Of a stretch of 36,277 nt of DNA, positions 3,404 through 36,277 are shown piece after piece. Every line of letters starts with the position of its first letter. Position 1 is the stretch's first letter. The DNA is from Acidimicrobiaceae bacterium (GTDB lineage Bacteria > Actinomycetota > Acidimicrobiia > Acidimicrobiales > RAAP-2). The position numbers and the translations under genes are program-made. Under the pieces are notes generated by a model, which was given only the letters and a program-made list of their open reading frames with translations, was not told where the DNA came from and ran no database searches. The stretch covers positions 1-36,277 of the forward strand of contig PLNQ01000139.1 of the NCBI GenBank assembly GCA_003141815.1, in the 5' to 3' direction.

Positions 3404-3441
3404 TGAAAGAGAAATCCTAAAAAGACAGTAAAAATAAGGTC

Positions 3442-3651: not shown

Positions 3652-3679
3652 CCAGTAAATAAGTTTTAGCGACGCGCCG

Positions 3680-4291: not shown

Positions 4292-4397
4292 CTCTTCTTC
4301 TCTCGAACGCTCCACGATACCGCCGAGGTCTCGGGGACTCGCGAGGTCAGTTCACGCTATGACGCGTCGCCACTAAATTGGGTTGGTGGAACCCGTG

Positions 4398-4844: not shown

Positions 4845-4885
4845 GCTGGCGCGACTAACGAGTAGGGATCATCGGCCAGTCACAC

Positions 4886-4907
4886 AGTTCTTCCTCGCTG
4901 AAGAACT
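4886..4907. terminator. Short hairpin after the TrmO-like gene
   Basis: A perfect 8-bp inverted repeat, AGTTCTTC / GAAGAACT, with a 6-nt loop, 42 nt beyond the stop codon of the TrmO-like gene. There is no following U-tract, so it may be a weak or factor-dependent terminator or only a 3'-end stabiliser. The rest of the 200-nt gap holds the promoter at 5011-5039. Confidence 0.3.
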
Positions 4908-5010
4908 CGCTGCAATGATTTCGTCACTTGTTGCTTCCGGTTGGCACAGGAGAACTTGTCAGCCTGGAGACCGACGAGGCGGCGCTGTCGGGGCGTCCCC
5001 AGGACCAACT

Positions 5011-5039
5011 TTGTGCTCTCTCTCACCTGACCCTATAAT
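5011..5039 (+). promoter_or_regulatory. Strong promoter for a leaderless transcript
   Basis: TTGTGC (5011-5016), a 17-nt spacer, then a perfect TATAAT (5034-5039). The ATG of the next gene begins at 5046, only 6 nt after the -10, which is where transcription should start. No Shine-Dalgarno is possible between them. The message of the iminopeptidase gene is therefore predicted to be leaderless. Confidence 0.7.
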
Positions 5040-5045
5040 GCCGCG

Positions 5046-5948: not shown

Positions 5949-5982
5949 GCAAGAGGCCGTATCTAAACAATAAAAGGGGAGC

Positions 5983-8732: not shown

Positions 8733-9701
8733 ATGTTCTATTTCATAGTTCGCCGATTCGCCTCGGCCGTCTTGGTCCTCTTCACCATCAGCGTGACGGT
8801 CTTTCTCATCTTTTTCGCCACGCCCGGCGTCGATCCGGCCGCGCGCATCGCCGGACGCAGCGCGTCGGCGCAAGTGCTCGCGCAAGTGGCGAAAGAGTTC
8901 GGGCTCAATCGGCCACTGCCCATCCGCTACCTCTTGATGATGGATCACCTCTTCATCAAACAAGACCTCACGTCCTACGTGAACGTTGGCGAGCGCGTGG
9001 TGCCCCAGATCACCCAGGCCGCGCCGGTCACCCTCTCACTCATCTTCGGCGCCGCCGTGATCTGGTTAATCGTGGGTGTCCTGGGCGGCGTCGTTGCCGC
9101 GGCGAACCAGGGAAAACTCATCGACCCAGTCATCATGTTCGTAGGCATCGCCGCGGTGTCCGTGCCCGCCTACTGGCTCGGCCAAGTGATGAACCTTTTG
9201 ACCCAGGGCACGTTCCACTCGTCGATCTTCGCCTGGGTGCCGCCCCCGGGCTACGTCTCGTTCACGACCAGTCTCTCCCAGTGGTTCCTCCATCTCCTCT
9301 TCCCCTGGTTCACGCTGGCCGCCCTCTACGCGGGGATCTACGCGCGCGTCCTGCGCGCCGAACTCGTGAACGCACTCAATGAGGACTACATCCGCACGGC
9401 ACGAGCCAAGGGTCTCTCCGAGCGTCGTATCCTTTTCCGTCACGCCCTGCGCTGTTCGTTGATCTCAATCGTCTCGCTGTTCGGACTGGACTTTGGTGCG
9501 CTCATCGGGGGAGCCGCGCTCCTCACCGAAGTCGTCTTCGGACTTCCCGGCGTCGGCTATCTGACGTACGTCTCGCTGCAGAGTTTGGACCTTCCGATGA
9601 TCATGGGGTGCGTCATGTATGGCGCCTTCTTCATCGTCCTCGCGAACGCCGTCGTGGACGTGCTCTACGCCTACTTGGATCCGAGGGTGCGCCTTGCCTG
9701 A
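8733..9701 (+). CDS. Peptide ABC transporter permease, DppB type
   Basis: A 322-aa permease of the DppB/OppB type, partner of the DppC-type subunit. It begins MFYFIVRRFASAVLVLFTISVTVF, the typical N-terminal helix with R-R in front. It then shows FATPGVDPA, FGLNRPLPIRYL and the coupling region DYIRTARAKGLSERRILFRHAL. The ATG directly follows the dppC stop codon with no gap, so translation is probably coupled. Its end overlaps the start of the following ATPase gene. About six membrane segments and a normal family length support the call. Confidence 0.92.
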   Translation: MFYFIVRRFASAVLVLFTISVTVFLIFFATPGVDPAARIAGRSASAQVLAQVAKEFGLNRPLPIRYLLMMDHLFIKQDLTSYVNVGERVVPQITQAAPVTLSLIFGAAVIWLIVGVLGGVVAAANQGKLIDPVIMFVGIAAVSVPAYWLGQVMNLLTQGTFHSSIFAWVPPPGYVSFTTSLSQWFLHLLFPWFTLAALYAGIYARVLRAELVNALNEDYIRTARAKGLSERRILFRHALRCSLISIVSLFGLDFGALIGGAALLTEVVFGLPGVGYLTYVSLQSLDLPMIMGCVMYGAFFIVLANAVVDVLYAYLDPRVRLA

Positions 9702-10710
9702 GTTGAACACCGAACGAGTGCCTGTCTTGAGCGTTCGTGACCTGAAGGTCTCCTTCGCCACACGCCAAGGCGTCCTTCGCGCGGTCGACGGACTCTCTTT
9801 CGACGTGGGACAAAAGGAGATTGTCGGCATCGTCGGTGAGTCGGGATCGGGCAAGAGCGTCGCCATTTACTCGATGCTCGGGCTCGTGCGAGAGAAGAAC
9901 GTGACCGTCACCGGCAGTGTGCTCTTCGACGGCCGCGAGATCCTTGGACTGAGCGACAAAGAGCTCCAGCCGATCCGCGGGGGCTCGATTGGCATGATCT
10001 TTCAAGATCCCATGACCGCGCTGACGCCGGTCTACACGGTGGGCTGGCAGCTCGTCGAACAGATCCGCCAACACCTTCACCTAACCAAGGCCGCCGCGCG
10101 CCAGCGCGCCATCGAACTGCTCGGCCAAGTAGGCATCCCCGATCCCAAGTCCCGTGTGGATCGCTACCCCCACGAGTTCTCGGGTGGCATGCGTCAACGC
10201 GTCGTCATCGCGATGGCCCTGTCGTGCAACCCGCGACTCTTAATCGCCGACGAACCCACGACGGCCCTCGACGTCACCACCCAAGCCCAGATCCTCGACC
10301 TGATGTTGAAACTGCAGGACACCTACGACTCCTCCATCATCATCATCACGCACGACATGGGCGTCATCGCCGAGATGGCGCATCGTGTCGTCGTGATGTA
10401 CGCCGGACGGCCCGTCGAGATCGCGCCCGAACTTGAGCTCATTCGCCACCCGCGTCACCCCTACACCTGGGGATTGCTCGACGCCGTGCCGCGCCTGGAC
10501 ACGAAGAACGAGCGCCTGCGCACCATTCGCGGCAACGCGGTATCGCCGCTCAACTTACCGCCGGGCTGCGCGTTCGCACCGCGCTGCGACTACGTGATGG
10601 ATAAGTGCGCGGAGCGCCCACCCCTCGATGGTGAGGCCGGACACGTCGACGCCTGTTGGTTGAGTGAAGCCCAACGCGTCTCGATTCGTGGCACCGAGGT
10701 ACGCTCGTGA
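9694..10710 (+). CDS. Peptide ABC transporter ATP-binding protein, DppD type
   Basis: A 338-aa ATPase powering the peptide importer. It contains Walker A GESGSGKSV near residue 47, the signature EFSGGMRQR, and Walker B LLIADEPTTALDVT. The oligopeptide-type C-terminal extension has the Cys-rich segment GCAFAPRCDYVMDKC, a site that binds an iron-sulfur cluster in some studied homologues. The TTG at 9694 is chosen because GAGGGTG precedes it at normal distance and it overlaps the dppB stop; a longer reading upstream would run through dppB. Its stop overlaps the GTG of the next ATPase by 4 nt. Confidence 0.92.
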   Translation: MPELNTERVPVLSVRDLKVSFATRQGVLRAVDGLSFDVGQKEIVGIVGESGSGKSVAIYSMLGLVREKNVTVTGSVLFDGREILGLSDKELQPIRGGSIGMIFQDPMTALTPVYTVGWQLVEQIRQHLHLTKAAARQRAIELLGQVGIPDPKSRVDRYPHEFSGGMRQRVVIAMALSCNPRLLIADEPTTALDVTTQAQILDLMLKLQDTYDSSIIIITHDMGVIAEMAHRVVVMYAGRPVEIAPELELIRHPRHPYTWGLLDAVPRLDTKNERLRTIRGNAVSPLNLPPGCAFAPRCDYVMDKCAERPPLDGEAGHVDACWLSEAQRVSIRGTEVRS

Positions 10711-11717
10711 CCGACGACGTCGTCCTAAAGGCCACCGACGTCGTGAAGACGTTCTCCTCGCGGGGAAAGAAATTGGGCACGCGAGTCGTCGCGCACGCGG
10801 TCAACGGCGTCTCACTCGAAGTGAAGCGCGGCGAGACGCTCGGCATCGTGGGTGAATCGGGGTGTGGAAAGTCGACGCTCGCGCGCTGTCTCGTCCAACT
10901 CTCGCCCGTGACGTCGGGATCGGTGATCTTTGAAGGTACCGACCTCACAGGGCTCTCGAGGCGCCGACTACGTCCCTTTCGACGCAAGTTCCAACTGGTC
11001 TTCCAAGACCCCTACGCGTCGCTCAATCCGCGTCGCACGGTAGGCGACATCGTCGCCGAGCCCATGCGGATCAATCATCTGGGCAGTTCGAGTGAGATCG
11101 ACGCGCGCGTGCGCGAACTCTTCACGACCGTGGGTTTAGACGCGGCCGCGATAAATCGCTACCCCCACGAGTTTTCGGGCGGCCAACGCCAACGCATCGG
11201 CATCGCGCGGTCGCTCTCACTCAATCCCACGTTGGTCATCGCCGACGAACCGGTGAGCGCTCTCGACGTCTCGATCCAAGCTCAGGTGCTCAACCTCATG
11301 GCTGACCTCCAGCAAGAGTTCAACCTCACCTACGTCTTCATCGCCCACGACCTCGGCGTCGTGCGACACGTCTCGAACCGAGTGGGTGTCATGTACCTCG
11401 GTGAGTTCGTCGAATTCGGCGACGCCGGTTCGCTCTACGAGACCCCGTTACACCCGTACACCGAAGCGCTCTTGTCCGTCGTTCCCGAGTTGAACGACAC
11501 CGACGCACCACGCCGTGAACGCATCATCATTGCGGGCGACGTGCCGGACCCCGCGGACCGACCGAGTGGTTGCCCCTTCCATCCGCGTTGCCCCGTCGCG
11601 ACCGACCTCTGTCGAGTGGAAAAACCCGAGTTGTTGACCATCGTCCCCGGTCGTCAAGTGGCGTGTCACTACCCACGCAACCTCGACGCGGTCAACGCCA
11701 CCAGCACGACTACGTGA
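10707..11717 (+). CDS. Peptide ABC transporter ATP-binding protein, DppF type
   Basis: The second ATPase of the heterodimer, 336 aa. Walker A is GESGCGKST near residue 48, the signature is EFSGGQRQRIGIARSL, and Walker B is LVIADEPVSALDVS. The C-terminal extension carries GCPFHPRCPVATDLC, again a four-Cys arrangement. The GTG start overlaps the preceding stop as GTGA. This is the last gene of the run of five transporter genes; the next gene is convergent. The short gap to that gene has an imperfect GC-rich inverted repeat (11729-11744) without a U-tract. Confidence 0.93.
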   Translation: MTDDVVLKATDVVKTFSSRGKKLGTRVVAHAVNGVSLEVKRGETLGIVGESGCGKSTLARCLVQLSPVTSGSVIFEGTDLTGLSRRRLRPFRRKFQLVFQDPYASLNPRRTVGDIVAEPMRINHLGSSSEIDARVRELFTTVGLDAAAINRYPHEFSGGQRQRIGIARSLSLNPTLVIADEPVSALDVSIQAQVLNLMADLQQEFNLTYVFIAHDLGVVRHVSNRVGVMYLGEFVEFGDAGSLYETPLHPYTEALLSVVPELNDTDAPRRERIIIAGDVPDPADRPSGCPFHPRCPVATDLCRVEKPELLTIVPGRQVACHYPRNLDAVNATSTTT

Positions 11718-11748
11718 GTTCGAATCGGCGCTGACGCGTCGGCGGCGT

Positions 11749-12684
11749 TCACTCACCAGACTTAGACATCCACTCCGCAACGTCGTCTCGTCGCGGTCCG
11801 GTTGCCGGACCGAATTTACTGATCGCCATTGCGGCGGCGGCGTTCGCCCATCGGGCGGCGGCAAGGGGGTCGTGACCACTGGCGAGCTCGGCGACGAAGA
11901 CACCGTTATGAACGTCGCCGGCACCGTTGGTGTCGACCACCGTCGTCGTGAATCCTGGAACGACGACCGCGTCGCGATGATTGAGAGCCACGGCACAACC
12001 CTCCGCGCCGCTTCGAACGAGTACGTCGAGAGTGTCATTTCGCGTCGCCAGTGACGTCGCCGCCTCGGCCGCGTCATCGCGGCCGGTGAGTGTCGTCGCT
12101 TCGGCCACGTTGCACAGCAGCCAGTTCGCGCGCGCGATCATCGTTTCGAGGTTCGACTTTGGAATGTCGACCATTCGTGTCGCGGGGTCAAAGAACACCG
12201 TCACTTCCAATGGGAGGCGAGCGATCCACGCCAGAACCAGGGCGCCGAGTTCGGGATACATGACGTTGTACCCGGACACCAAAACGTAGTCGCGCGCTCG
12301 CACCCCAAGCGCGTCGAGGTCGTTCGCGCGAAGCGTGGCTTCGGCGCCGGGCGACGTGACAAACGTGCGCTCACCGTCTGGCTCGAGGAGCACGACGCAG
12401 ATCCCCGTGTCGAGGTCTACGTTTCGTGCGATGGGCGCCAGGATGCGTTCGCGTTCGAGCGTCGTGGTCGCGAGTTCGGAGAAGGGACCCGCGCCCAATC
12501 GGCCCGCGTACGTGACGGGCATGTGGTGTCGAGCAGCGGCACTCATGGCGTTAAATCCCCCGCCAGTCGTGACGAGTTTTTCGCTCGCGAGCGCGTCGCC
12601 CGCACGTTGTGGTAGCGCCGAAATCTTTAGCACCACGTCAATCAAGACAGTGTCGAGACAAAAAAGTCGCGGCGCGTCGCTCAT
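11749..12684 (-). CDS. PfkB family carbohydrate kinase
   Basis: A 311-aa cytosolic sugar or nucleoside kinase of the ribokinase/PfkB family. The N-terminal substrate region has GGGFNAMSAAARH and GRLGAGPF. The C-terminal signature is VVDTNGAGDVHNG, in which the Asp of GAGD is the catalytic base and the Gly-Ala-Gly loop is the anion hole. The order and length match ribokinases; the sugar cannot be read from sequence. The ATG at 12684 has no clear Shine-Dalgarno. A weak TAGGGT 8 nt upstream suggests a leaderless start. It is divergent from the NCS1 transporter gene, which may hint at nucleoside use. Confidence 0.85.
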   Translation of the reverse strand: MSDAPRLFCLDTVLIDVVLKISALPQRAGDALASEKLVTTGGGFNAMSAAARHHMPVTYAGRLGAGPFSELATTTLERERILAPIARNVDLDTGICVVLLEPDGERTFVTSPGAEATLRANDLDALGVRARDYVLVSGYNVMYPELGALVLAWIARLPLEVTVFFDPATRMVDIPKSNLETMIARANWLLCNVAEATTLTGRDDAAEAATSLATRNDTLDVLVRSGAEGCAVALNHRDAVVVPGFTTTVVDTNGAGDVHNGVFVAELASGHDPLAAARWANAAAAMAISKFGPATGPRRDDVAEWMSKSGE

Positions 12685-12812
12685 AGACCAACACCCTAGT
12701 GAGCAGGTCGTGAAACTTCTAACGAACGATCGGGCGCTGGGCCGTCGTGCAATTGCTGATCACTGCGTACAATCGATGCCAGCGAAGCACAAGGCTGTCG
12801 CGAGGAGGAACC

Positions 12813-14282
12813 GTGAGCGACGATGTAGCTGAGCGACTAGGCACTGGATCTTCCGGCGTCCTACGAATCGAAGAAAACGGCATCAACGTCATCGCCGAGA
12901 ACGAGCGAAAGGGCCATCCCCGAGACCTCTTCTGGCCCTGGTTCGGCGCGAACGTCTCGGTCCTCGGCTTGGGATACGGCGCGTACGTGTTGAACTTCGG
13001 CATCTCCTTCGCCCAGGCCCTCATCGTGGGCGTGATCGGAACGGTCTTTAGCTTCTTGCTCTGTGGCATTATCGCCACCGCCGGCAAGCGGGGCTCGGCA
13101 CCCACCATGGTGCTCTCGCGCGCGGCCTACGGCGTGCGCGGGAACCGCCTCCCGTCAGCCATCTCGTGGTTGCTCTGTGTCGGTTGGGAGACCGCCCTGA
13201 GCGTTATTGCCGTCCTCGCCACGAATACCGTCTTCGTTCGCCTCGGATGGGGCGGGGGCGACGGTCTGAAGATCGTGGCGATGCTCGTCATCGCCGCACT
13301 GATCATCGGTGGCGGCGTGATGGGCTTTGACATGATCATGCGCATGCAGGTGATCATCACCGTCGTGACCGGCATCCTGACAATCCTCTTCATCGGCCTC
13401 ACGGCGAAGCACATAAGTTGGCACGTCGTAAGCCACGTTCACAGTGGCTCATTCCAACTGACCATCGGCGCGCTGGTCTTCGTCATGACGGGATTCGGAC
13501 TCGGTTGGGTGAACGTGGCGGCGGACTATTCGCGCTACCTGCCGCGCACTGCCTCGTCACGCGGCGTGGTCTGGTGGACCACCCTCGGCTCCTCCTTGGC
13601 GCCTCTCATCCTCATCGGTTTCGGACTTCTTTTGGCGGGATCGTCGTCGTCACTGCGCAGTGCCGTTGGCAATGACCCCGTAGGGGCATTGGCGAACTTG
13701 TTGCCCACCTGGTTCCTCGTGCCCTACGTCATCGTGGCCATACTTGGACTGGTTGGCGGTGCCGTGCTGGACATCTACTCCTCGGGTCTCGCGCTGTTGT
13801 CGGCGGGACTCAAGATCCCCCGCTACGCCGCGGCGGGCGTGGACGGCGTGATCATGTTGATCGGAACGATCTACATAGTCTTCGATAAGCAGAACTTCCT
13901 CTACCAGTTCGAAGGCTTCCTCATCACGGTGGGCGTCTTGATCGCTGCGTGGTGCGGCGTCTTCTTGGGTGACCTCTTGTTGCGCAAGAAGAACTACGTC
14001 GAGCGCGATCTCTTCCAGTCGTCGGGTCGATACGGTGACCTGCGCCTCGTGCCCATCGCGACCACCGTCGTGTCGAGCTTCCTCGGCTGGGGACTCGTCA
14101 CGAACACCTACGCCTCTTGGCTCACGTGGCAGGGCTACTTGCTAAAGCCCTTCGGTCTCGGGGGCAAGACGGGTCACTGGGCCGGCGCCAACTTGGGTGT
14201 GCTCGTCGCCCTGGCCCTAAGTTTCGTACTCACCATTCTCTTCACGCGAGGCGACGTCGTGAGAGAAGAGGCCCTGGCCTAG
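12813..14282 (+). CDS. NCS1 family nucleobase:cation symporter
   Basis: A 489-aa membrane transporter of the NCS1 family (cytosine, purine, allantoin or hydantoin permeases). The GTG at 12813 is preceded by GAGGAGGAACC and chosen over an upstream ATG at 12747. About twelve hydrophobic segments are visible. The family hallmark FGLGWVNVAADYSRYLPR, the helix 6 region, is present, as is DLFWPWFGANVSVLGLGYG at helix 1. TACAAT at 12768-12773 could be the -10, with a poor -35. The substrate cannot be assigned. A hydantoinase operon 12 kb away makes a pyrimidine, dihydropyrimidine or hydantoin ligand worth considering, but this is inference. Confidence 0.88.
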   Translation: MSDDVAERLGTGSSGVLRIEENGINVIAENERKGHPRDLFWPWFGANVSVLGLGYGAYVLNFGISFAQALIVGVIGTVFSFLLCGIIATAGKRGSAPTMVLSRAAYGVRGNRLPSAISWLLCVGWETALSVIAVLATNTVFVRLGWGGGDGLKIVAMLVIAALIIGGGVMGFDMIMRMQVIITVVTGILTILFIGLTAKHISWHVVSHVHSGSFQLTIGALVFVMTGFGLGWVNVAADYSRYLPRTASSRGVVWWTTLGSSLAPLILIGFGLLLAGSSSSLRSAVGNDPVGALANLLPTWFLVPYVIVAILGLVGGAVLDIYSSGLALLSAGLKIPRYAAAGVDGVIMLIGTIYIVFDKQNFLYQFEGFLITVGVLIAAWCGVFLGDLLLRKKNYVERDLFQSSGRYGDLRLVPIATTVVSSFLGWGLVTNTYASWLTWQGYLLKPFGLGGKTGHWAGANLGVLVALALSFVLTILFTRGDVVREEALA

Positions 14283-14284
14283 CG

Positions 14285-14316
14285 CTCGACGTCGAGGCCG
14301 TCGCCGCTAGCGACGG
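14285..14316. terminator. Convergent-gene hairpin
   Basis: Between the stop codons of two convergent genes lie a 12-bp palindrome, CTCGACGTCGAG (14285-14296), and a perfect 7-bp stem, CCGTCGC / GCGACGG (14298-14316), with a 5-nt loop. There is no strong U-tract on either strand. A bidirectional terminator is the likely role. Confidence 0.4.
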
Positions 14317-14317
14317 T

Positions 14318-14557
14318 CTAGGACTTCTTGGTGATGAGATCGAAGCCCCACCACAGGGCCCACGCGAGCACGCCCGTCATCACGACGGCGAGGACGACAC
14401 CGAGGATTCGAATGAGGAGTCGTCGACCAGTATCACGGGCGAACGAAAGTGCGACGAGTCCGATTGAGAACGCGACGACGACGCCCACGCCCGCTAGGAC
14501 GGCCACGAGGACCACGTGGCCCAGCAGCGACCAGTCGACGAGAGAAGTGGCGATCAC
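14318..14557 (-). CDS. Small two-helix membrane protein downstream of PiT
   Basis: A 79-aa protein with two hydrophobic segments, about residues 12-38 and 47-71, joined by a short basic loop (RDTGRR) and ending in KKS. It lies 24 nt after the PiT transporter gene on the same strand, so it is likely cotranscribed. Small membrane proteins of this kind often follow actinobacterial PiT genes, so it may be a partner or modulator of phosphate uptake. I do not recognise a named family. Confidence 0.6.
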   Translation of the reverse strand: MIATSLVDWSLLGHVVLVAVLAGVGVVVAFSIGLVALSFARDTGRRLLIRILGVVLAVVMTGVLAWALWWGFDLITKKS

Positions 14558-14581
14558 GTGGTGACGAAACGTCGGGTGGGC

Positions 14582-15733
14582 TTACGCCGCGACGACGGTA
14601 GCGGCTTCGGGTGGCGCGAGCGACTCGCCCCAGAGGTCGTTCACGTTCGTAGCGTTGATCGCGTGACGACGTGAACGTCGCACCAACAACGTGACGTACG
14701 CCGCAGCGACGATTGCCAACACTGCGACACCATACGTTCCGCCGATGAGGTGGGCGACGTAGTACGAGAAGGCGCCGAAGAGTCCGGCCGCCGGCAAGGT
14801 AATGACCCACGCCATGGCGACGTCAGCGACGAGTCGCCAGCGAACGGGCTGCTGGGGCGTCGCGGCGCCGACGCCAATGATTGAACCGGTGGCGACGTGC
14901 GTCGTTGATAGCGGCAGGCCCAAGTGCGACGACGTCAAGATCACGGCTGACGAGGCAATCTGCGCGGCAAATCCCTGTTGGGGCGTCAAGTGAGTGAAGC
15001 CGTGACCCATGGTGCGAATGATGCGCCACCCGCCAAAGAACGTGCCCATCGCGATGGCGACGGCGCAACAGACGACGACCCACGCGGGAGTGGAGGAGTT
15101 CGACGCGATCGTGCCGTTTGCGATCAGGGCCAGCGTGACGACGCCCATGGTCTTTTGTGCGTCATTGGTGCCGTGCGCGATGGAGAGCAGCGACGATGAG
15201 CCGATCTGTCCCACGCGAAAGCCCCACGTCGAGGTGTCGTGGTCGACCTTCGCCGTGAGACGTCTCGCGGCGAAGACGGCGACACCGGCGGCGACAAGAG
15301 CCACGAGCGGTGCCAGACCCGCTGGAATGATGACCTTCGAGATCAGACCACCCCACAGCACCGCGTGGCCGCCGGCGAGTACCACCATCGCACCAATGAC
15401 CCCGCCGATCAACGCGTGACTCGAACTTGAGGGAATGGCGAAGTACCACGTGGTTACGTTCCACGCGATGGCGCCGATGAGTCCCGCGAAGATCACTGGC
15501 AACGTCACGAGATTCTGTGCGACGAGGGCACTGGCGATGGTCGCGGCAACTTTGAGCGAAAGGAACGCTCCCACGAGGTTGAAGAGAGAGCTGAGCGCCA
15601 CGGCCGTTCGTGGCTTCAACGCCCCCGTCGCGATGGTCGGCGCGATGGCGTTGGCCGTGTCGTGGAAGCCATTCGTGAAGTCAAAGGCGAGCGCGACCGT
15701 CACGACGATAGCCAGTAGAAGCGTGTTGTGCAT
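14582..15733 (-). CDS. pit: PiT family inorganic phosphate transporter
   Basis: A 383-aa low-affinity phosphate (metal-phosphate/H+) symporter in the membrane. Both PiT signature repeats are visible: the N-terminal GFHDTANAIAPTIATGALKP near residue 22, and IAHGTNDAQKTMGVVTLAL in the second half. About ten hydrophobic segments surround a central loop. GGAGG lies only one base before the ATG at 15733, an unusually short spacing, but the N-terminus fits the family. The 228-nt gap to the divergent pfkA gene has no clear hairpin. It complements the high-affinity Pst system at the left edge. Confidence 0.92.
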   Translation of the reverse strand: MHNTLLLAIVVTVALAFDFTNGFHDTANAIAPTIATGALKPRTAVALSSLFNLVGAFLSLKVAATIASALVAQNLVTLPVIFAGLIGAIAWNVTTWYFAIPSSSSHALIGGVIGAMVVLAGGHAVLWGGLISKVIIPAGLAPLVALVAAGVAVFAARRLTAKVDHDTSTWGFRVGQIGSSSLLSIAHGTNDAQKTMGVVTLALIANGTIASNSSTPAWVVVCCAVAIAMGTFFGGWRIIRTMGHGFTHLTPQQGFAAQIASSAVILTSSHLGLPLSTTHVATGSIIGVGAATPQQPVRWRLVADVAMAWVITLPAAGLFGAFSYYVAHLIGGTYGVAVLAIVAAAYVTLLVRRSRRHAINATNVNDLWGESLAPPEAATVVAA

Positions 15734-29401: not shown

Positions 29402-29570
29402 CTCTTTGAGTGTCCGGTGACGTTAGGTACCTTTTGCCGCGGCGCGGGCGCAACGGCACGTAACTTCTCACCAATTTCGAAACCATCTCTCAGCCATCCA
29501 ACAGCACCTTCACATCACTCTCACAATTGCGCTGTCTACTCTGAGAACTGTTCCTGTGAAGGGAGAGCCA

Positions 29571-30305
29571 ATGAAAAACTTAACTACCCGATCCATCTCG
29601 GTGTTCGCACTCGTCGCCGCCATGGGTATCAGCATTCCAGCCGTTGCGTACGCCGATTCGCCGCCTTCCCCGTCGACCGACACGACTCCAAGTGCCAGTT
29701 TCGTCACGGCACAAAAGGCGCTCGAGCTCCAGCTCACGAACCGCGCAACGCAACTCCAGCACCTCGTCACGGACGTGACCGGGGCGACCACGCTGAGCGC
29801 GAGTGTTGTAACGACGCTCCAAGCACGTCTTTTATCCGAGGAATCGAGTATTAATTCCCTGGTCGCAAAGGTTCCGACGGACACCACCAGAGCAGAACTC
29901 AACACAGACCGCGCGACAATGCTCAAGGACAACCGCGTCTACGCGGTGATGTCCCCACAAGTGTTCGAAATGATCGAAGCCTCGGTTGTGGCGGGCCAAG
30001 TTACGACGTTGCAGGGCAACGAATCGACGCTCCAATCAGAAGTCGCGTCGCTTTTAGGTCTGCCGGGTTACGCGAATGCTCTCAACCACTACAACAACTA
30101 CGTCGCTCGACTTTCCAACTGGTCAACGAAGATTGTGACCGTTGAGAGCGTCGTGCTTGCCCAGACGCCGCAGGCCTACCCAGGGAACACGAAGATCTTC
30201 GTCGCCGAGAATCACGGTATTCTCAACGCGAACATTGCCCTTGCGTACGCCGCGTATGACGCGAGCATCATCGGTCTCGCAACCGGCGGATACACCGGTG
30301 CGTAG
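29571..30305 (+). CDS. Hypothetical secreted helical protein
   Basis: A 244-aa exported protein. ATG 29571 is preceded by GAAGGGAGAGCC, and residues 1 to about 28 are a Sec signal peptide ending AVAYA. The mature part is Thr-, Ser- and Gln-rich, with helical heptad-like stretches between about residues 48 and 190 and no Cys. The C-terminus (IALAYAAYDASIIGLATGGYTGA) is small-residue rich. I do not recognise a family. It is followed by the strong terminator at 30336-30379 and stands alone. Confidence 0.65.
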   Translation: MKNLTTRSISVFALVAAMGISIPAVAYADSPPSPSTDTTPSASFVTAQKALELQLTNRATQLQHLVTDVTGATTLSASVVTTLQARLLSEESSINSLVAKVPTDTTRAELNTDRATMLKDNRVYAVMSPQVFEMIEASVVAGQVTTLQGNESTLQSEVASLLGLPGYANALNHYNNYVARLSNWSTKIVTVESVVLAQTPQAYPGNTKIFVAENHGILNANIALAYAAYDASIIGLATGGYTGA

Positions 30306-30532: not shown

Positions 30533-30607
30533 TGGTGCCCCCGGCAGGATTCGAACCTGCGCTCACGGTTTAGGAAACCGATGCTCTATCCCCTGAGCTA
30601 CGAGGGC
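30533..30607 (-). tRNA. tRNA-Arg (anticodon CCT)
   Basis: Complete cloverleaf on the minus strand with an encoded CCA (30533-30535). The acceptor stem is GCCCTCG/CGGGGGC with one G-U pair, the D-stem is GCTC/GAGC, the anticodon loop is TTCCTAA and the T-arm is GCAGG-TTCGAAT-CCTGC. The first base pair of the anticodon stem is a T-T mismatch. The 5' half (to the anticodon loop) lies in the 34-bp direct repeat of the integrated element, so this half and its upstream promoter come from the element. Confidence 0.95.
30569..30602. repeat. Left attachment repeat in tRNA-Arg
   Basis: 34-bp sequence beginning TTTAGGAAACC and ending GAGCTACG, identical to 34807-34840. It covers the tRNA from the anticodon loop to the 5' acceptor stem, in the same orientation as the right copy. 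It marks the junction of the integrated element with the chromosome. Confidence 0.88.
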
Positions 30608-30651
30608 AAATATTGGGTTTTCAACTACTTTCGAGGCTTCGCAAACGAACG

Positions 30652-30670
30652 AGCACAACCTCAGCACAAC
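30652..30670 (+). repeat. Left arm-type repeat
   Basis: AGCACAACCTCAGCACAAC, two AGCACAAC units 11 bp apart, repeated exactly at 34658-34676. Paired direct repeats inside each end of an integrated element are typical binding sites of the recombinase N-terminal domain. Confidence 0.6.
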
Positions 30671-30755
30671 CTCGAGGAAAAAGTGCCCCGCTCTTCGCGA
30701 TGCCTCCCCACTATTCAAACACGCCTGCACGGAACCGAGAGAACGTTGGGTTCTC

Positions 30756-32138
30756 GTGAAACCTCGACAGGTCAAAGTAACGGTATCTGCACCGACCGAA
30801 TACCCGGACCGCAACATGCCCTACGTCGTCCGCTGGCGATTGAACGGACATGGATACTGGCGAAGTTTTTCGACCAAACGAGGGGCCAATGGCGCCGAGG
30901 CTTTCCACGCGAAGATGAAGGTCGCAATGTTCAACGAACCAAGCTGGGATTCGAGAACTGGACTCCCCACTTCCATGAGTCCTTCGAGCGAACTCAATCT
31001 GGCCGAGTACTGCCGTTCATTCATCCAGGATCAGTGGCGACGTCTTTCGCCATCAACGCGCAGGAGTTATGTGGAAGCCTTGACGTCGTTCGTGTTCAAC
31101 TGCACGCGCAGTGCAGCACGGCTGCCCGTATATGAGTGGCGCCAGATTCTGGCATCGTGGATGACGCCTCGATTCAGTCATGTTGTCGGCGGTGATACAC
31201 CGGATTGGGCTTGGACAGATGATCCACTACCTCGGGGCCTTCAGGCTTGGGTGTCCAAGAATTCTCCGCTCTTAACTGAACTGGATCGAAAGACACTCTA
31301 CGAAACAGACCGCCGCATGCGTCTTCGTCCAGACGGAGTGACGCTCTATGCGCCCAGCACTCAGAGCCGCCTCATCACGGTAGCCAAGACTGCGCTCTCA
31401 ACGGCCGAACAAAAGGGTCTCATTGATGCCGTGCCGTGGCCTCGTCGCGAGAGCGGTGCGACGGCAAAGAGCGACCGCAAGGCTTCTCTCGATACTCGAG
31501 ATGAGGCAGTACCAAGCGTTGCGCAGTTACGGGCGATTCTCGATGCAATCCCCTCTCATCAGCCTTCTAGCCACCTGTACCGTGCACTCTCGGCCGTCTG
31601 CGGGTTCGCGGAATTGCGACCTGGCGAGGCGGTCGTTCTCCGAGTCGAGGATCTCACGCTTCCAGACAGTGGTTGGGGTGCGATTCGTATCACTCGAGCA
31701 TGGTCCGCCACCGACAATTCAAAGTGGAGTATCGACCAAGAGGCCATTGCCGGACCGAAGACGGAACGTAGCCTTCGCACCGTCCCGATTCCACCGATCC
31801 TCGTCGAGATCCTTGTTGACTGGATGAAACGCCGCGAGATAACGCACGGACCGCTGTTCCTCTCGCAGTCAGGCTCACGTCCCACGCAAAGTAACTGGGG
31901 TCGCGCTCTACGTCGCGCCAGTCACCTTGTCGGGCGGCAATACCCGTTGAGCCCTTACGGTCTCCGACGCACCAACGCATCCCACCTCGTCCAAGTGATT
32001 CCCATCGCTGAAGCGGCTGCGAGACTGGGACACTCAGTTGACATCCTCACGAAGCACTTCGTCAAGCGAGTTGCCGGCCAAGAATCACTGTCGAACCAGA
32101 TACTCGATCAGTTCTACGACTCTGGTTATCGAATCTGA
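30756..32138 (+). CDS. int: Tyrosine recombinase (integrase) lacking the catalytic Tyr
   Basis: A 460-aa phage-type integrase. It has an N-terminal arm-binding region (PYVVRWRLNGHGYWRSFSTK), a core-binding domain at about residues 85-215 and a catalytic domain at about 260-445. Catalytic residues seen are Arg288 (ELRPGE), Lys335 (GPKTERS), Arg404 (PYGLRR) and His426 (LGHSV). The nucleophilic Tyr, expected nine residues after the His as in VYAK of relatives, is Phe435 (KHFVK; codon TTC 32058-32060). Tyr401 in place of the first box-II His is common in this subfamily. A 6-bp hairpin (30739-30755) abuts the GTG start and could limit translation. Confidence 0.88.
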   Translation: MKPRQVKVTVSAPTEYPDRNMPYVVRWRLNGHGYWRSFSTKRGANGAEAFHAKMKVAMFNEPSWDSRTGLPTSMSPSSELNLAEYCRSFIQDQWRRLSPSTRRSYVEALTSFVFNCTRSAARLPVYEWRQILASWMTPRFSHVVGGDTPDWAWTDDPLPRGLQAWVSKNSPLLTELDRKTLYETDRRMRLRPDGVTLYAPSTQSRLITVAKTALSTAEQKGLIDAVPWPRRESGATAKSDRKASLDTRDEAVPSVAQLRAILDAIPSHQPSSHLYRALSAVCGFAELRPGEAVVLRVEDLTLPDSGWGAIRITRAWSATDNSKWSIDQEAIAGPKTERSLRTVPIPPILVEILVDWMKRREITHGPLFLSQSGSRPTQSNWGRALRRASHLVGRQYPLSPYGLRRTNASHLVQVIPIAEAAARLGHSVDILTKHFVKRVAGQESLSNQILDQFYDSGYRI

Positions 32139-32377
32139 GCCATACTTTCAAGCCACTCGTCAAGAGCAGCGCGGCGTATGCGGAGCTGACCATTCGGAAG
32201 CTTCACAAAGGAAATGTGACCCGATCTGCGCCAACCATCGAGTGTGGAACGACTTACGCGGAGGTGCTGCATCGCTTGTGCATAGTCCAGCCACACGTGA
32301 ATGCGCGAGTCGCGAGCCTGATATGTCCAGTTCTCGTTCGGCAAATCTTCGTTCGTGACATCGGTTGACTTTCTCAT
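32126..32377 (-). CDS. Excisionase-like helix-turn-helix protein
   Basis: An 83-aa DNA-binding protein with a MerR/HTH_17-type winged helix: DYAQAMQHLRVSRSTLDGWR, then RSGHISFVKLPNGQLRIRRAALDEWLESM. This is the layout of excisionase (Xis)-type proteins, which bend attachment-site DNA and direct the recombinase to excise. ATG 32377 follows GGGAGCGAT; the frame is open to 32422. The gene is convergent with the integrase and overlaps its 3' end by 13 nt, so antisense interference between the two is possible. A repressor role is an alternative. Confidence 0.78.
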   Translation of the reverse strand: MRKSTDVTNEDLPNENWTYQARDSRIHVWLDYAQAMQHLRVSRSTLDGWRRSGHISFVKLPNGQLRIRRAALDEWLESMAQIR

Positions 32378-32721
32378 ATCGCTCCCTACCAGAAGACGAG
32401 GTTTTCGACTTCTACTTAACAAGCCAATTTCAGAAGCCGATTGGGGACACGAAAGTGGCGATGATCTTGAGAAATGTGATCAGTGGACGTTGAGAGACGT
32501 TGATGGATCTTCGGATCGAACCTATGAGGCCTTCGGGCTGCCGGGCGCTACGCGCCCGACGCCCAGTCAAGGCGGGCTGATGAAGGCTTGAAGTCGGGGC
32601 GTTACGTAACTCTTCTATACGTTCTTCAAGTGAGCGTCCTGCTTCCAAGCCATTAAGTGATTTCCGGCACTTCGAGTCGTTGACACGTCGATCACCGGTT
32701 TGCATCTGCCACAATTTAGTA
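32378..32721. other. Divergent intergenic region of the element
   Basis: About 340 nt between the excisionase-like and cargo genes. It contains a perfect 7-bp stem CGGGCGC/GCGCCCG with a 3-nt loop (32542-32558) and a TTGACA at 32680-32685, a possible -35 for the cargo gene with no convincing -10. A minus-strand open frame (32430-32714) has no recognisable motif and is not called. Confidence 0.4.
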
Positions 32722-34545
32722 ATGAACGACGGGCTTTCATTCGAGCAGCTTTTGGCAATGGCCGAATCTGGAGACGGCGAGGCGATGGAAGAACTCGCGA
32801 AGCGGTACGCGGATCGCGAGGACGCGGAGACAGCCGAACTTTGGTATAGAAAAGCTTCCGAGTCGGGGGTCGTCCGAGCAATGAACCGACTCGGTGATTT
32901 GTTGGAGGAACGAGAAGATCTTGAGGCAGCAGAAGAGTGGTTTGGGAAGGGGGCGTTGCTCGGCGACGCGTATTCAATGTTCAGTTTTGGTTTTCGTCTC
33001 GCTCAGCGTGGCGACACTGCAGACGCTGAGTACTGGTATCGAAAGAGCGTAGAGCTTGGAGAAGTGGGCGCAATGTACCAACTCGGATACTTGCTTGAGA
33101 CTCAAGAAAACTTGGAAGATGCCGAGAAATGGTATCGGCGAGCAGCGGAACTCGGCAGCACTTACGCAATGGGAGGTCTTGGCACATTGCTGAAACGTCG
33201 AGGCGACCTCGAGCAAGCAGAAGAGTGGTATCGAAAGGGCGCAGAGCTTGGCGAAGAGGACGCAATGGGCCAACTCGGATACTTGCGTGAGGCTCAAGGC
33301 GACTTGGAGGGTGCCGAGAAGTGGTATCGGCGAGCAGCGGAACTCGACAGCACTTACGCAATGGGATGCCTTGGCACATTGCTGAGACGTCGCGGAGACC
33401 TTGAGCAAGCAGAAGAGTGGTATCGAAAAGCAGTGCTGAATGGTCGCACTTATTCGATGAATAGCTTGGGCATGCTACTGCGCGACAAAGGCAATCTTGA
33501 AGAAGCCGAGGAGTGGTTCTTAAAGGGAGCAAATGTCGGAGAGGTTGATGCGATCAACACCCTGGCCTACACGCTGAATAACAGAGGCGAAGTGCAGAAG
33601 GCGGAAGAATGGACCCGTAAGGCCACCGAACAAGACAGTGACTACGCATGGAACTTTTTGGGCAACGCGCTGGAGGCTCGCGGTGAACTCGCTGAAGCGG
33701 AGAGGTGTTTTCATAGGGCAGTCGAAGCGGGTTACAAGGATTCTCTCCTTGCGTTGGGCCGTATGAGTCAGATTCGAAGAGAAATGGTGGAGTCGGAACT
33801 TTGGTATCGCCGTGCCGCTGGGGAGGAAGTGAGTGGCGCAGAAAGCGCGCTTAAGAGTCTTGAGCTAGCCGTCAGATCGGCTGAGATGATGGACGCCATC
33901 ACGTTCGATACGTTCGGGTGGACGCCCACTGTGAACGAAGAGAACCTTCGGGCCTGGCGGGGAGACCACGCGACGCTAGTCGAGAGGAATATTGCCACCG
34001 ACTTCGACTTCACCTCGTATGACGAGGAAGAATTGCGGGCCGAATTTGGTGACTTCATGGAGCAGATAAATTCCCCTTCCTTCGATGTCGGCGACCTCGA
34101 GATACCAGAGGAGTTCGGGAAACTTGACACCGAGCACTTTCCGAAACAGTCGAGTCTGCTCGAACTCGAACGATTTGAACTAAATAACGCCAAATGCTTG
34201 TTTACGATCACTCGGCATCGGATGCAAGAAGTGATTCATTATGCGAGCGCAACGATGATTTGTTTTGCCGAGTGCTTCTGGTTGCTGGGAATCGAACTGG
34301 ATGAGCAAGAGTTGGTGGGCGCCCGTGAGGCCGCAGTTGCTCGGTTTGAGATCGACGCAAGAGATTCGGGCTTACCCGAGAGCGGTGGATCTGATCCCTA
34401 CGACTCGAAGTGGGATGGTTTGATTCCCATCGAGGACGACCCACTGACACGCATACGTCAGTTGACGAAGATTCTTCTCAAATCACTCGCACTTGGCGAA
34501 ACCGCACGACGACTAGAGGCATTAGAAGGCGACGATGACGAATAG
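32722..34545 (+). CDS. Sel1/TPR-type repeat protein, element cargo
   Basis: A 607-aa soluble, acidic protein. Residues about 20-385 contain 11 helical repeats with a 32-residue period and consensus GDLEQAEEWYRKGAELG-x2-AM-x2-LG-x-LL, the Sel1-like/TPR form common in actinobacteria, which usually scaffolds protein contacts. Residues about 390-607 form a separate domain without repeats (FDTFGWTPTVNEENLRAWRGDH; HYASATMICFAECFWLLGIEL; DDPLTRIRQLTKILLKSLALGE) that I do not recognise. No signal peptide or enzyme motif is seen. ATG 32722 begins the conserved part but lacks a Shine-Dalgarno; the frame is open to 32680. As the only cargo it may give the host or element a selective function, unknown here. 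Confidence 0.8.
   Translation: MNDGLSFEQLLAMAESGDGEAMEELAKRYADREDAETAELWYRKASESGVVRAMNRLGDLLEEREDLEAAEEWFGKGALLGDAYSMFSFGFRLAQRGDTADAEYWYRKSVELGEVGAMYQLGYLLETQENLEDAEKWYRRAAELGSTYAMGGLGTLLKRRGDLEQAEEWYRKGAELGEEDAMGQLGYLREAQGDLEGAEKWYRRAAELDSTYAMGCLGTLLRRRGDLEQAEEWYRKAVLNGRTYSMNSLGMLLRDKGNLEEAEEWFLKGANVGEVDAINTLAYTLNNRGEVQKAEEWTRKATEQDSDYAWNFLGNALEARGELAEAERCFHRAVEAGYKDSLLALGRMSQIRREMVESELWYRRAAGEEVSGAESALKSLELAVRSAEMMDAITFDTFGWTPTVNEENLRAWRGDHATLVERNIATDFDFTSYDEEELRAEFGDFMEQINSPSFDVGDLEIPEEFGKLDTEHFPKQSSLLELERFELNNAKCLFTITRHRMQEVIHYASATMICFAECFWLLGIELDEQELVGAREAAVARFEIDARDSGLPESGGSDPYDSKWDGLIPIEDDPLTRIRQLTKILLKSLALGETARRLEALEGDDDE
33111..33428 (+). repeat. Internal two-repeat duplication in the cargo gene
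   Basis: Bases 33111-33236 and 33303-33428 are about 92% identical (10 differences in 126), offset by 192 bp, which is 64 codons or two 32-residue repeats. Other repeats in the gene are far more diverged. This shows a fairly recent tandem duplication of a two-repeat unit. Confidence 0.8.
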
Positions 34546-34657
34546 CGATTTAGGATCTCCGACACCAGTCATGATCCGCACACTCAAGTCGCCAATGCGA
34601 GGTTGCGGACATGTTGCGTCTGGTCTCCGACATGAACTCGCACTCACTACTAAAGCC

Positions 34658-34676
34658 AGCACAACCTCAGCACAAC
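34658..34676 (+). repeat. Right arm-type repeat
   Basis: Exact second copy of the 19-bp sequence at 30652-30670, in the same orientation, 130 bp inside the right core repeat. The 34546-34806 stretch otherwise holds no gene. Confidence 0.6.
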
Positions 34677-34806
34677 ATTTGTAAAGAACGGTGGCGAATG
34701 GTAAAGAATAATTGATACTCTAAACTTTCGGTGAAGTACCGCTTCATCAGAAGTTTTGGCTAAATAAACGGGATAGGGCCTCGACTCACAAAGGGTGCCA
34801 GAACGA

Positions 34807-34840
34807 TTTAGGAAACCGATGCTCTATCCCCTGAGCTACG
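34807..34840. repeat. Right attachment repeat
   Basis: Exact copy of 30569-30602 in direct orientation. It marks the right end of the integrated element and is part of the stranded tRNA half. Confidence 0.88.
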
Positions 34841-34845
34841 GGAGC
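34807..34845 (-). pseudogene. Stranded 5' half of the original tRNA-Arg gene
   Basis: Reading on the minus strand, GCTCCCG-TA-GCTC...GAGC and on to the anticodon loop form the 5' half of tRNA-Arg. Its acceptor strand GCTCCCG pairs fully (one G-U) with the CGGGGGC 3' strand at 30536 onward, as the element-supplied GCCCTCG also does. This indicates that it is the chromosomal 5' half displaced by integration. It has no 3' half here. Confidence 0.8.
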
Positions 34846-34861
34846 CACAGCCCCTTGCTCC

Positions 34862-34890
34862 ATTCTTTCGACAGGGTGCAAAAATGGCAA
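34862..34890 (-). promoter_or_regulatory. Orphaned tRNA-Arg promoter
   Basis: On the minus strand TTGCCA (34890-34885), a 17-nt spacer and AAGAAT (34867-34862) lie 16 nt before the 5' end of the stranded tRNA half. The spacing suits a tRNA promoter with a short processed leader. If active it now transcribes into the element, antisense to the cargo gene. Confidence 0.5.
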
Positions 34891-35096
34891 CAAGACGGTC
34901 TTATGGTGCAGGCTGACTCGTCGAGCGCCCTGCTGGTAGCGGGAATTGGATGTATAGATACGTCGAAGCCAATGATCCAGCCAAAGGCCACAACGCGCTC
35001 AGCGTCGGCATAATGTTGACAAGTTCTGTGACGCCCCCGAGCATCTACGTGTCAGTTCGCGGCATTCACGGGTGTCGAAGTTGGCCTTTCACCTGA
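34891..35096. other. Gene-free chromosomal stretch
   Basis: About 200 nt between the element junction region and arsC. No credible gene, hairpin or RNA is seen; the small plus-strand open frame crossing the tRNA remnant has no coding support. Confidence 0.4.
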
Positions 35097-35507
35097 CTAG
35101 GACTCGGCCTTCAAGAGGTCGGCGATCAAGGTTCGAACGCGTTTTTCAATGTCATCACGAATTGGACGGACGTCGTCGATTACTTTGCCAGCCGGGTCGG
35201 TCAACTCCCAGTCGAGGTACCGTTTACCGAGGTACACGGGACAAGCGTCGCCGCAGCCCATAGTGACGACGACGTCGGCGCTTCGGCCCATTTCGTCGGT
35301 CAACTTGCGCGGAGTCTCGCTGGATATGTCGATACCCTTCTCCAGCATCGCGGCCACTACTGCGGAATTCAAAGTCTCTCCCGGAGCGGAACCAGCCGAG
35401 TGAATTACTACGCGATCGCCGCCGATCTCGCGGGCGAACGCGGCGGCCATCTGCGATCTCCCAGCATTGTGCACGCACAGAAAAAGAATTCCGGGACGGA
35501 TGTTCAT
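35097..35507 (-). CDS. arsC: Arsenate reductase, thioredoxin-coupled LMW phosphatase type
   Basis: A 136-aa cytosolic enzyme that reduces arsenate to arsenite. The low-molecular-weight phosphatase loop CVHNAGRSQM (Cys-x5-Arg) is near residues 12-21, and the second redox region has MGCGDACPVY with two further Cys, as in thioredoxin- or mycothiol-linked ArsC. The C-terminal DWELTDPAGK and the DDVRPIRDDIEKRV helix also fit. ATG 35507 follows GAGGTGGC and overlaps the acr3 stop codon as ATGA, so the two form an operon. The fused reductase at 19349-20554 could in principle supply electrons, which is inference. Confidence 0.9.
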   Translation of the reverse strand: MNIRPGILFLCVHNAGRSQMAAAFAREIGGDRVVIHSAGSAPGETLNSAVVAAMLEKGIDISSETPRKLTDEMGRSADVVVTMGCGDACPVYLGKRYLDWELTDPAGKVIDDVRPIRDDIEKRVRTLIADLLKAES

Positions 35508-36277
35508 GAAGCCACCTCGACGGCGGTATCCGAAGCGTAAAATTGACGCTTCGCCCACAGCGATACATAGACCAGCCCAACGAGTACTGGCACCTCAATG
35601 AGAGGTCCGACCACGCCGGCCAACGCTTCGCCACTCGTAACTCCAAAGACACCAATGGCAACGGCAATTGCTAGTTCGAAGTTATTGCCCGCAGCCGTAA
35701 AGGCCAAGGTTGTGGTCCGGTCATAGGGAAGGCCAAGTGCTCTCCCGAGTGCGAATGACCCGAACCACATGATCGCGAAATAGCACAGCAGCGGCACGGC
35801 AATACGCGCCACGTCGCCAGGACGTGCGGTGATGGTGTGACCCTGAAGAGCGAAGAGGATAACGATGGTGAATAGCAAGCCGTAGAGAGCGAAGGGGCCA
35901 AGGCGCGGCAACAGTTTGGTTTCATACCACTCTCGACCGCGCTGACGTTCACCGAGTGTGCGCGTGAGATAGCCCGCAACGAGTGGTATTCCCAGGAAAA
36001 TGGCAACGGTTTCGGCAATTCGACCAATGGAAAGATGCAGGCCCACCGTGCTGAGTCCGAGCCATTCTGGAAGCACCTTCAGATAGAAGTAGCCGAGGAG
36101 GGCGAAAGCGACGATCTGAAACAACGAGTTGATCGCTACGAGAACGGCCGCCGCCTCGCGGTTACCACCCGACAAATCATTCCAAATCAGCACCATGGCG
36201 ATGCAACGTGCGAGGCCAACGATTATGAGACCCGTCCGGTAGGTCGGTAGGTCGGGCAACAGCAACCAAGCCAGGGT
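35504..36277 (-). CDS. acr3: Arsenite efflux transporter Acr3, N-terminus outside window
   Basis: C-terminal 257 residues of an Acr3-type arsenite exporter of the BART superfamily. The conserved GLIIVGLARCIAMVLIWNDL with its essential Cys is present, as are GIPLVAGYLTR and TLAFTAAGNNFELAIAVAIG. About seven membrane helices are seen. Relatives start roughly 110 residues earlier, and the frame is open to the window end, so the gene is cut by the window and not truncated in nature. It pumps out the arsenite made by ArsC, which follows it. Confidence 0.92.
   Translation of the reverse strand, partial: TLAWLLLPDLPTYRTGLIIVGLARCIAMVLIWNDLSGGNREAAAVLVAINSLFQIVAFALLGYFYLKVLPEWLGLSTVGLHLSIGRIAETVAIFLGIPLVAGYLTRTLGERQRGREWYETKLLPRLGPFALYGLLFTIVILFALQGHTITARPGDVARIAVPLLCYFAIMWFGSFALGRALGLPYDRTTTLAFTAAGNNFELAIAVAIGVFGVTSGEALAGVVGPLIEVPVLVGLVYVSLWAKRQFYASDTAVEVAS

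What the first reader, a model, noticed from the sequence alone, without database searches (positions are those of the whole stretch)
30569..34845. Element integrated on the 5' side of a tRNA gene, with the original 5' half stranded at the far end
The 34-bp direct repeats cover the anticodon loop to 5' acceptor part of tRNA-Arg(CCT). The recombinase and cargo lie on the 5' side of the intact tRNA, so the element rebuilt the 5' half, not the usual 3' half. The two 5' acceptor strands differ (GCCCTCG against GCTCCCG) but each pairs fully with the shared 3' strand. That points to an element-borne half that evolved for compatibility. The host tRNA now depends on an element promoter.
Basis: partly seen in the sequence, partly recalled or inferred. 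Interest (0 to 1): 0.75.

Follow-up and report, generated by a model that had tools for sequence, protein, structure and literature searches.

The report
Islands that replace a tRNA's front half
A small mobile DNA element sits in front of an arginine tRNA gene and supplies the gene's front half, a known but rare arrangement that in this group of bacteria is frequent and sometimes stacked on the same gene.

Summary
A 4.2-kb element (Tyr integrase, excisionase, TPR protein) lies 5' of the only tRNA-Arg(CCT) found in this draft genome. An exact 34-bp repeat marks both ends, and the crossover fits the 7-bp anticodon loop. Identical 19-bp arm-like repeats lie inside both ends. The half stranded at 34845 is not the original. 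It belongs to an older element of another integrase family, which left a 38-codon integrase relic (34875-34988) and an arsenic operon. The native half, with native upstream sequence, lies 1.3 kb beyond the window, across two short gaps. In 99 genomes of the genus I collected 65 intact genes: 18 have the native upstream by profile, 21 have an 11-bp-spaced repeat instead, 21 neither, 5 too little sequence. I found 31 stranded 5' halves against 5 stranded 3' halves; Islander lists 159 against 3,760. The acceptor difference is no special adaptation: native genes carry all three variants. The window's integrase has Phe where 22 of 22 compared relatives have the catalytic Tyr, so this copy is probably fixed in place. 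The arrangement is a known rare kind; its frequency, stacking and use by two integrase families are what I did not find described. Promoter takeover is inferred.

The parts
30533..30607 (-). intact tRNA-Arg(CCT); 3' half chromosomal, 5' half from element A
   Evidence: ARAGORN; only 3'-half match of this tRNA in the genome at up to 2 mismatches (assembly 89.9% complete)
30569..30602 (-). exact 34-bp repeat, copy 1; contains the anticodon-loop core TTCCTAA (30570-30576)
30652..30670 (+). P-side arm-like repeat AGCACAACCTCAGCACAAC (two 8-mers 11 bp apart)
   Evidence: family D8; 2 matches in window, 0 expected
30756..32138 (+). tyrosine integrase (int1 family), divergent from the tRNA; Phe435 at the catalytic Tyr position
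   Evidence: PF00589 2.4e-11; XerD/XerA alignments; Tyr in 22 of 22 relatives
32126..32422 (-). excisionase-like helix-turn-helix protein
   Evidence: HTH_17 1.3e-12; TIGR01764; phrog_66
32680..34545 (+). TPR/Sel1 repeat protein, cargo
34658..34676 (+). P'-side arm-like repeat, identical to 30652-30670
34807..34845 (-). stranded 5' half (exact repeat 34807-34840); core 34808-34814; formerly the working half carried by element B
   Evidence: upstream not native by profile
30577..34814 (.). element A, 4,238 bp between cores
   Evidence: core positions
34856..34863 (-). single arm-like 8-mer (ATGGAGCA in the tRNA sense) at the P end of element B
34875..34988 (+). relic of a second-family integrase (int2): first 38 codons, one in-frame stop, no further match
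   Evidence: tblastn 63% identity, E 3e-12 against two short subject sequences only, query residues 1-38
34815..36277 (.). element B (arsenic island), continuing to about contig position 37625
35097..35558 (-). arsenate reductase-like protein, element B cargo
   Evidence: LMWPc 6.3e-22; arsC models below NCBIfam cut-off
35504..36265 (-). Acr3 arsenite efflux transporter (part; continues past the gap at the window end)
   Evidence: TIGR00832 8.1e-92

Best explanation
Element A is an integrative island whose attP carries the 5' half of tRNA-Arg(CCT) together with element DNA upstream of it. The integrase would bind paired 8-bp arm sites on both sides and recombine the 7-bp anticodon loop (TTCCTAA) of attP with that of the chromosomal gene. 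The crossover leaves the chromosomal 3' half joined to the element's 5' half and upstream region, and pushes the previous 5' half to the far end. Here the previous half already belonged to element B, an older arsenic-carrying island of another integrase family, which had displaced the native half and native upstream earlier. The tRNA is therefore on its third 5' half and probably its third promoter. Shown: anatomy, order of the array, displaced native upstream, repeat signature, recurrence in the genus. Inferred: exact strand-exchange position, arm function, promoter takeover, loss of activity of this integrase copy.
For: Exact repeat and integrase on the 5' side. Arm-like repeats inside both ends. 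In the genus, exact 7-mer repeats at 11-bp spacing occur upstream of 27 of 59 non-native and 0 of 35 native sites with at least 85 bp upstream; at spacings 8-10 and 12-15 the count is 0 or 1 of 59. Similarity of stranded halves to the tRNA stops shortly after the loop in 30 of 31. Native upstream sits at 18 of 65 intact and 16 of 31 stranded sites. The 3' flank of element-bearing G086 matches that of native G101 at 91% over 1,374 bp, starting about 80 bp from the gene in both. Three other int1 integrases (62-67% identity) sit divergent, 363-386 bp 5' of the same tRNA. int2 relic and int2-type ends of element B.
Against: No excised circle, transcript or assay was seen. The third half is linked to the window across two short NN gaps; acr3 homology on both sides of the first gap supports continuity. 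The relatives are drafts, many with contigs ending at this tRNA. 21 of 65 intact genes have an upstream that is neither native by profile nor carries a strict repeat; some may be native variants (G018, G021, G070 by eye). With one mismatch allowed, 3 of 35 native sites also show a 7-mer repeat (against 35 of 59). In G074 and G029 native-type upstreams occur together with element features. No relative was found with native upstream joined to the window's own 3' flank: the best 3'-flank matches of the window genome (G011, G075, G068) are themselves non-native.
Confidence: 0.87

Rival explanations
1. The stretch 30608-34807 is ordinary chromosome and the 34-bp repeat is a tRNA pseudogene or duplication.
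For: Partial tRNA copies can arise by duplication; the stranded half is truncated at the loop.
Against: Integrase, excisionase-like gene and matching repeats at both ends; 31 stranded halves in 20 genomes, with similarity stopping shortly after the loop in 30 of 31 (that they reach the loop is required by my pattern); native upstream at 16 of them.
Confidence: 0.04
2. The array is a metagenome-assembly chimera joining strains at the repeated tRNA half.
For: Fragmented draft (186 contigs, 89.9% complete, 5% contamination); contigs of relatives often end at this tRNA; one fragmented genome, G034, gives 5 of the 31 stranded halves.
Against: Element A has no gaps; the same integrase-repeat-tRNA layout occurs in three other genomes; end types pair consistently within elements in G000, G005 and G036.
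Confidence: 0.06
3. Compatible with the main reading: the element is no longer active but domesticated; the integrase is dead and the element stays because losing it would cost the tRNA.
For: Phe435 in place of the nucleophile Tyr present in 22 of 22 relatives. In one search an integrase recognised by the int1 profile lay on the 5' side of only 7 of 46 intact genes then labelled element-type.
Against: One draft sequence. A helper integrase could act in trans. Many of those 46 had only about 1.5 kb of flank or less, other integrase families could be missed, and the label then included a few sites later called native. A second tRNA (TCT) may read AGG, so the gene may not be essential.
Confidence: 0.55

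Closest known systems
Islander tDNA islands with a 5' tDNA fragment (PMC4383910, passages seen)
   Same: tRNA gene, displaced 5' fragment upstream in the same orientation, Tyr integrase between; anticodon-centred attP class
   Different: There a minority (159 of 3,919 islands; 3,760 have a 3' fragment); here the commoner case at one tRNA, with stacked arrays and two integrase families
Thermococcus pTN3-type integrases (PMC8371274 passages; PMC5495485 passages)
   Same: [quoted passage not shown] the rebuilt gene is separated from its original promoter
   Different: Archaeal; the integrase gene is split on integration, whereas here it stays whole; no sequence kinship tested
tRNA-dependent lysogeny of actinophages (PMC10865867, passages)
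   Same: The host comes to depend on mobile DNA for a tRNA
   Different: There the tRNA is destroyed and the phage brings a whole tRNA gene; here half a gene is supplied and the tRNA is rebuilt
Ordinary 3'-side tRNA islands of related integrases
   Same: Related integrases at roughly 29-44% identity to the queries, tRNA-Arg or tRNA-Ser targets; for tRNA-Arg a similar anticodon-loop boundary
   Different: They carry the 3' half and leave the native promoter in place

Membership tests
Tyr-integrase island in a tRNA gene (Islander criteria) | intact tDNA plus displaced tDNA end fragment in the same orientation | tested here: met
Tyr-integrase island in a tRNA gene (Islander criteria) | integrase gene between them, length 2-200 kb | tested here: met
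   (4,238 bp)
Tyr-integrase island in a tRNA gene (Islander criteria) | 5' fragment lies upstream of the tDNA, not downstream | tested here: met
Active tyrosine recombinase | catalytic Tyr | tested here: not met
   Phe435; Tyr in 22 of 22 relatives and in XerD/XerA alignments
Active tyrosine recombinase | excision circle or recombination activity | not testable with these tools
   needs reads or assay
[quoted passage not shown]
pTN3-type 5' integration | integrase gene split by integration | tested here: not met
   460-codon open frame 149 bp from the tRNA
tRNA-dependent lysogeny | target tRNA not rebuilt; element carries a whole tRNA | tested here: not met
   one tRNA in the window, rebuilt
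Conjugative element or prophage | transfer or virion genes in the element | tested here: not met
   only integrase, excisionase-like and TPR genes recognised; integrase matches in plasmids and phages at most 30.4% identity, none in a pattern-limited viral scan

The most novel reading that the evidence does not exclude
In much of this genus the front half and promoter of tRNA-Arg(CCT) have been handed over to mobile DNA: successive elements of different integrase families take turns supplying them, dead elements are kept because the gene now depends on them, and in one species (G022) elements on both sides supply both halves, so the working tRNA is assembled wholly from mobile parts.
Probability: 0.4. 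Interest if true: 0.72.

Novelty: new variant of a known kind. Interest (0 to 1): 0.52.

Why it matters
tRNA-gene islands usually carry the 3' half, which leaves the host promoter untouched. Elements that bring the 5' half must also bring a promoter, so they take control of a housekeeping gene. A genus where this seems to have happened many times at one gene makes the cost, the promoter replacement and any addiction-like retention testable, with native and replaced versions side by side. It also suggests that the side of insertion is set by which half of the gene attP carries, since related integrases use a similar loop boundary from either side.

Tried and rejected
The GCCCTCG half as a mark of element origin: rejected, native genes carry it too.

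A promoter in the element's P end: the consensus scan found none. A block that looks conserved by eye in several int1 P ends (TGTTTGAATAGTGGGGA in the tRNA sense, about 30707-30726; sequences printed) has no convincing -10 and was left unassigned.

5'-sidedness outside the genus: suggested by ARAGORN at G327. With more flank it was a stranded 3' half, so I dropped it. G248 has the integrase 5' of an intact tRNA-Arg(CCT), but no stranded half was found in the 14 kb fetched.

Phage, plasmid or viral origin: a pattern-limited viral-contig scan gave no relative; plasmids (5 records) and phages (6 records) gave matches of 26-30% identity.

Papers: Williams 2002 on tRNA sublocation is not held; I know it only through other papers and recall. 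Searches listed no report of this genus or of serial 5'-half replacement; I saw the listings, and passages of four papers. They cover open-licence PMC papers only, and the search cannot match 5' with its prime.

No fold was used.

Counting: the first survey merged identical sites of different genomes and so left out G001, G020:C69 and G114. One search recounted with merging within genomes only; its numbers are used here. Change: 65 instead of 62 intact, 69 instead of 67 genomes; stranded and repeat counts unchanged. Confidence in the main reading was lowered from 0.88 to 0.87 because the window genome's own 3' flank matches only non-native relatives.

Full report
What is there. The tRNA-Arg(CCT) gene is at 30607-30533 on the minus strand. 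Its 5' half recurs at 34845-34803 at 93% over 43 nt, with 34 bp exact (30569-30602 = 34807-34840). Between the copies lie a tyrosine integrase (30756-32138, divergent from the tRNA), an excisionase-like protein and a TPR/Sel1 protein. A 19-bp sequence made of two 8-mers 11 bp apart stands at 30652 and again at 34658 in the same orientation; with up to two mismatches allowed the window holds these two copies, against none in 100 shuffles.

The crossover. My search pattern required each 5' half to reach the end of the anticodon loop TTCCTAA, so that part is by construction. What follows is not: of 31 stranded halves, 27 continue with NCCG, and in 30 the next bases are unlike the tRNA; the exception, at G118:C17, shares a further run. 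That fits a 7-bp overlap in the anticodon loop, the Islander class 'anticodon centered'. Placing the strand exchange there is inference.

The far half is not the original. The window is bases 1-36277 of a 38,253-base contig. A third 5' half lies at contig 37656-37619. Its upstream is the native type by profile, so I take it as the native half. It has one change inside the anticodon, so it is decaying. The half at 34845 has instead ...TCGAAAGAATGGAGCA..., like the P end of a second class of elements with a different integrase (int2, about 390 aa, starting 41-58 bp from the tRNA in five genomes; three of the five run against Pfam, all with PF00589 and PF14659; P ends printed). A tblastn with two int2 proteins found a relic of the first 38 codons at 34875-34988, at the expected place, with an in-frame stop (E-value 3e-12, for two short subject sequences only). 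The far end of this element (TCCGAAGACT...) resembles the far ends of elements with the same P-end type in G005 and G036. So element B, with arsC-, acr3-, glyoxalase- and arsR-like genes, arrived first, and element A second. The link to the third half crosses two NN gaps.

The genus. Ninety-nine genomes were searched for the 5' half; 84 matched, counting also the CCG tRNA (whose list was cut; four genomes at its end were searched again). From these places, those and four named loci, 103 CCT-type sites in 69 genomes were read: 65 intact, 31 stranded, 7 at contig edges. Genomes whose gene has a longer D-loop are under-sampled (G083 and G089 are missing), one site with N in it (G078:C93) was left out, and a few sites at contig ends may be counted twice (e.g. 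G117, G111, G006). Of the 65 intact genes 18 have native upstream by profile, 21 an 11-bp-spaced repeat, 21 neither, 5 too little sequence. Of the 31 stranded halves 16 are native, 8 have the repeat, 6 neither, 1 too short; they lie in 20 genomes, five of them in G034. By genome, of 60 with an intact gene 20 have only the repeat type, 16 only native, 18 only 'neither', 6 are mixed or too short. Some 'neither' sites (G018, G021, G070) look like native variants to the eye, and others look like weak repeats. The native class was defined without using the repeats. Exact 7-mer repeats spaced 11 bp occur at 27 of 59 non-native and 0 of 35 native sites with at least 85 bp upstream; at other spacings from 8 to 15 the count is 0 or 1 of 59; in mononucleotide shuffles 0.3%. 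With one mismatch allowed the numbers are 35 of 59 and 3 of 35, and 5.4% in shuffles.

Same locus. 3' flanks of intact genes align between element-type and native genomes: G086 (element) with G101 (native) at 91% over 1,374 bp from about 80 bp after the gene in both; G086 with native G032 at 87% over 1,657 bp, but 3.2 kb further out in one of them; G091 with native G102 at 88% over 1.4 kb with a 0.2-kb offset; G077 with native G033 at 85-88% with a 2.3-2.5 kb offset. So the locus is the same and the 3' side has its own insertions. For the window genome the matches are G011, G075 and G068, none of them native, so its own empty site was not found. A search with the 597 bp beyond the third half gave matches in 21 of 99 genomes, mostly to the native upstream segment itself.

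Stranded 3' halves. A search for the 3' half at up to two mismatches, followed by reading of the hits not paired with a 5' half, gave G071, G072, G024 and G084, plus G022: five away from contig ends. G076 is unclear because of NN, and three to four further hits end at contig ends. Islander counts 3,760 3' fragments against 159 5' fragments (PMC4383910 Table 1, passage). The bias is thus inverted at this tRNA, within the limits of two searches of unequal tolerance.

Integrases. The int1 proteins of G022, G091, G008 and G074 (62-67% to the window protein) form a 100/100 clade with it. Near them in the tree, on an open fork, are G072 and G084, and then G022b; these lie with 3'-side elements of the same tRNA. 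More distant relatives in the order (12 of 397 genomes had a match, the window's among them) sit beside 3' halves of tRNA-Arg in four loci read further, or 3' of tRNA-Ser in four loci; others were unresolved. So far 5'-sidedness is seen for int1 and, separately, int2 in this genus. In G074 the int1 element ends in a decayed 24-nt remnant. G022 carries a 5'-side and a 3'-side element on one tRNA, with a native-type 5' half on contig C18 and a 3' half at C10:33277. Both halves of its working gene may be element-borne; the 3' part rests on one degenerate half whose flank matched no other genome here.

A dead integrase? Among 23 integrases the window protein reads LGHSVDILTKHF where the 22 others have Tyr at the last position. 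That position aligns with the Tyr of the IYTHV/IYTKV motif of XerD and a XerA-like protein. That this Tyr is the nucleophile is recalled knowledge. The copy is thus probably unable to excise on its own. One draft sequence supports this; no reads were seen.

What it does. The rebuilt tRNA has a full acceptor stem with any of the three 5' variants. All three occur at native genes (GCCCTCG 7, GCCCCCG 7, GCTCCCG 4 of 18), so the pairing is ordinary constraint. Transcription most likely starts inside the element, because the native upstream now lies about 7 kb away; no promoter was identified and read-through was not tested. The genome also holds tRNA-Arg(TCT), which by general knowledge can read AGG, so the CCT gene may tolerate altered expression. 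That may be why it is a favoured target; this is conjecture.

Known or new. 5'-side tRNA islands are known and rare; a review says of expression from the integrase promoter that it is 'seldomly encountered in bacteria', citing Williams 2002 (PMC8371274, passages). Thermococcus pTN3 is a studied case (PMC5495485, passages). What I did not find in the searches listed under Tried and rejected is serial replacement at one tRNA across a genus, by two integrase families, in stacked arrays. The genus is unnamed in the tools. Four of its loci match public assemblies, three titled Acidimicrobiaceae (isolate names palsa or fen) and one Actinomycetes; equal contig lengths equate them with G022, G008, G091 and G074.

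Noticed in passing
window 30756-32138, codon 435: Phe at the catalytic Tyr position of the integrase; 22 of 22 compared relatives have Tyr.
   Followed up: partly
L105 (G022:C10) and L052 near 1224-1278: Elements on both the 5' and the 3' side of one tRNA-Arg(CCT), so the working gene may be made of two element-borne halves.
   Followed up: partly
L106 / L196 (G074:C20): A decayed 24-nt 5' end of the tRNA with int1 and arm-like repeats behind it lies 1.1 kb upstream of an intact gene with native-type upstream, which may itself have been carried in or restored.
   Followed up: no
L073 (G029:C57) 6209 and 7903: Two stranded 5' halves, both with native-type upstream, 1.7 kb apart: some elements may carry a native-type promoter.
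   Followed up: no
just after the tRNA 3' end in G028:C55, G027:C18, G036:C68 and G072:C47: Short repeats of the tRNA 3' end (CTGCCGGGGGCAC or nearly so), possible traces of further 3'-end insertions.
   Followed up: no
window 30707-30726: A block (TGTTTGAATAGTGGGGA in the tRNA sense) similar in several int1 P ends, function unknown.
   Followed up: no
window 29556-30305: 249-aa open frame next to the tRNA 3' end with no Pfam or NCBIfam match at the limits used; the window's 3' flank here is about 1 kb longer than in G075.
   Followed up: no
L199 (G118:C17) 1502-15593: A 14-kb span between a native-type stranded 5' half and the intact gene with int1-type repeats; contents not read.
   Followed up: no
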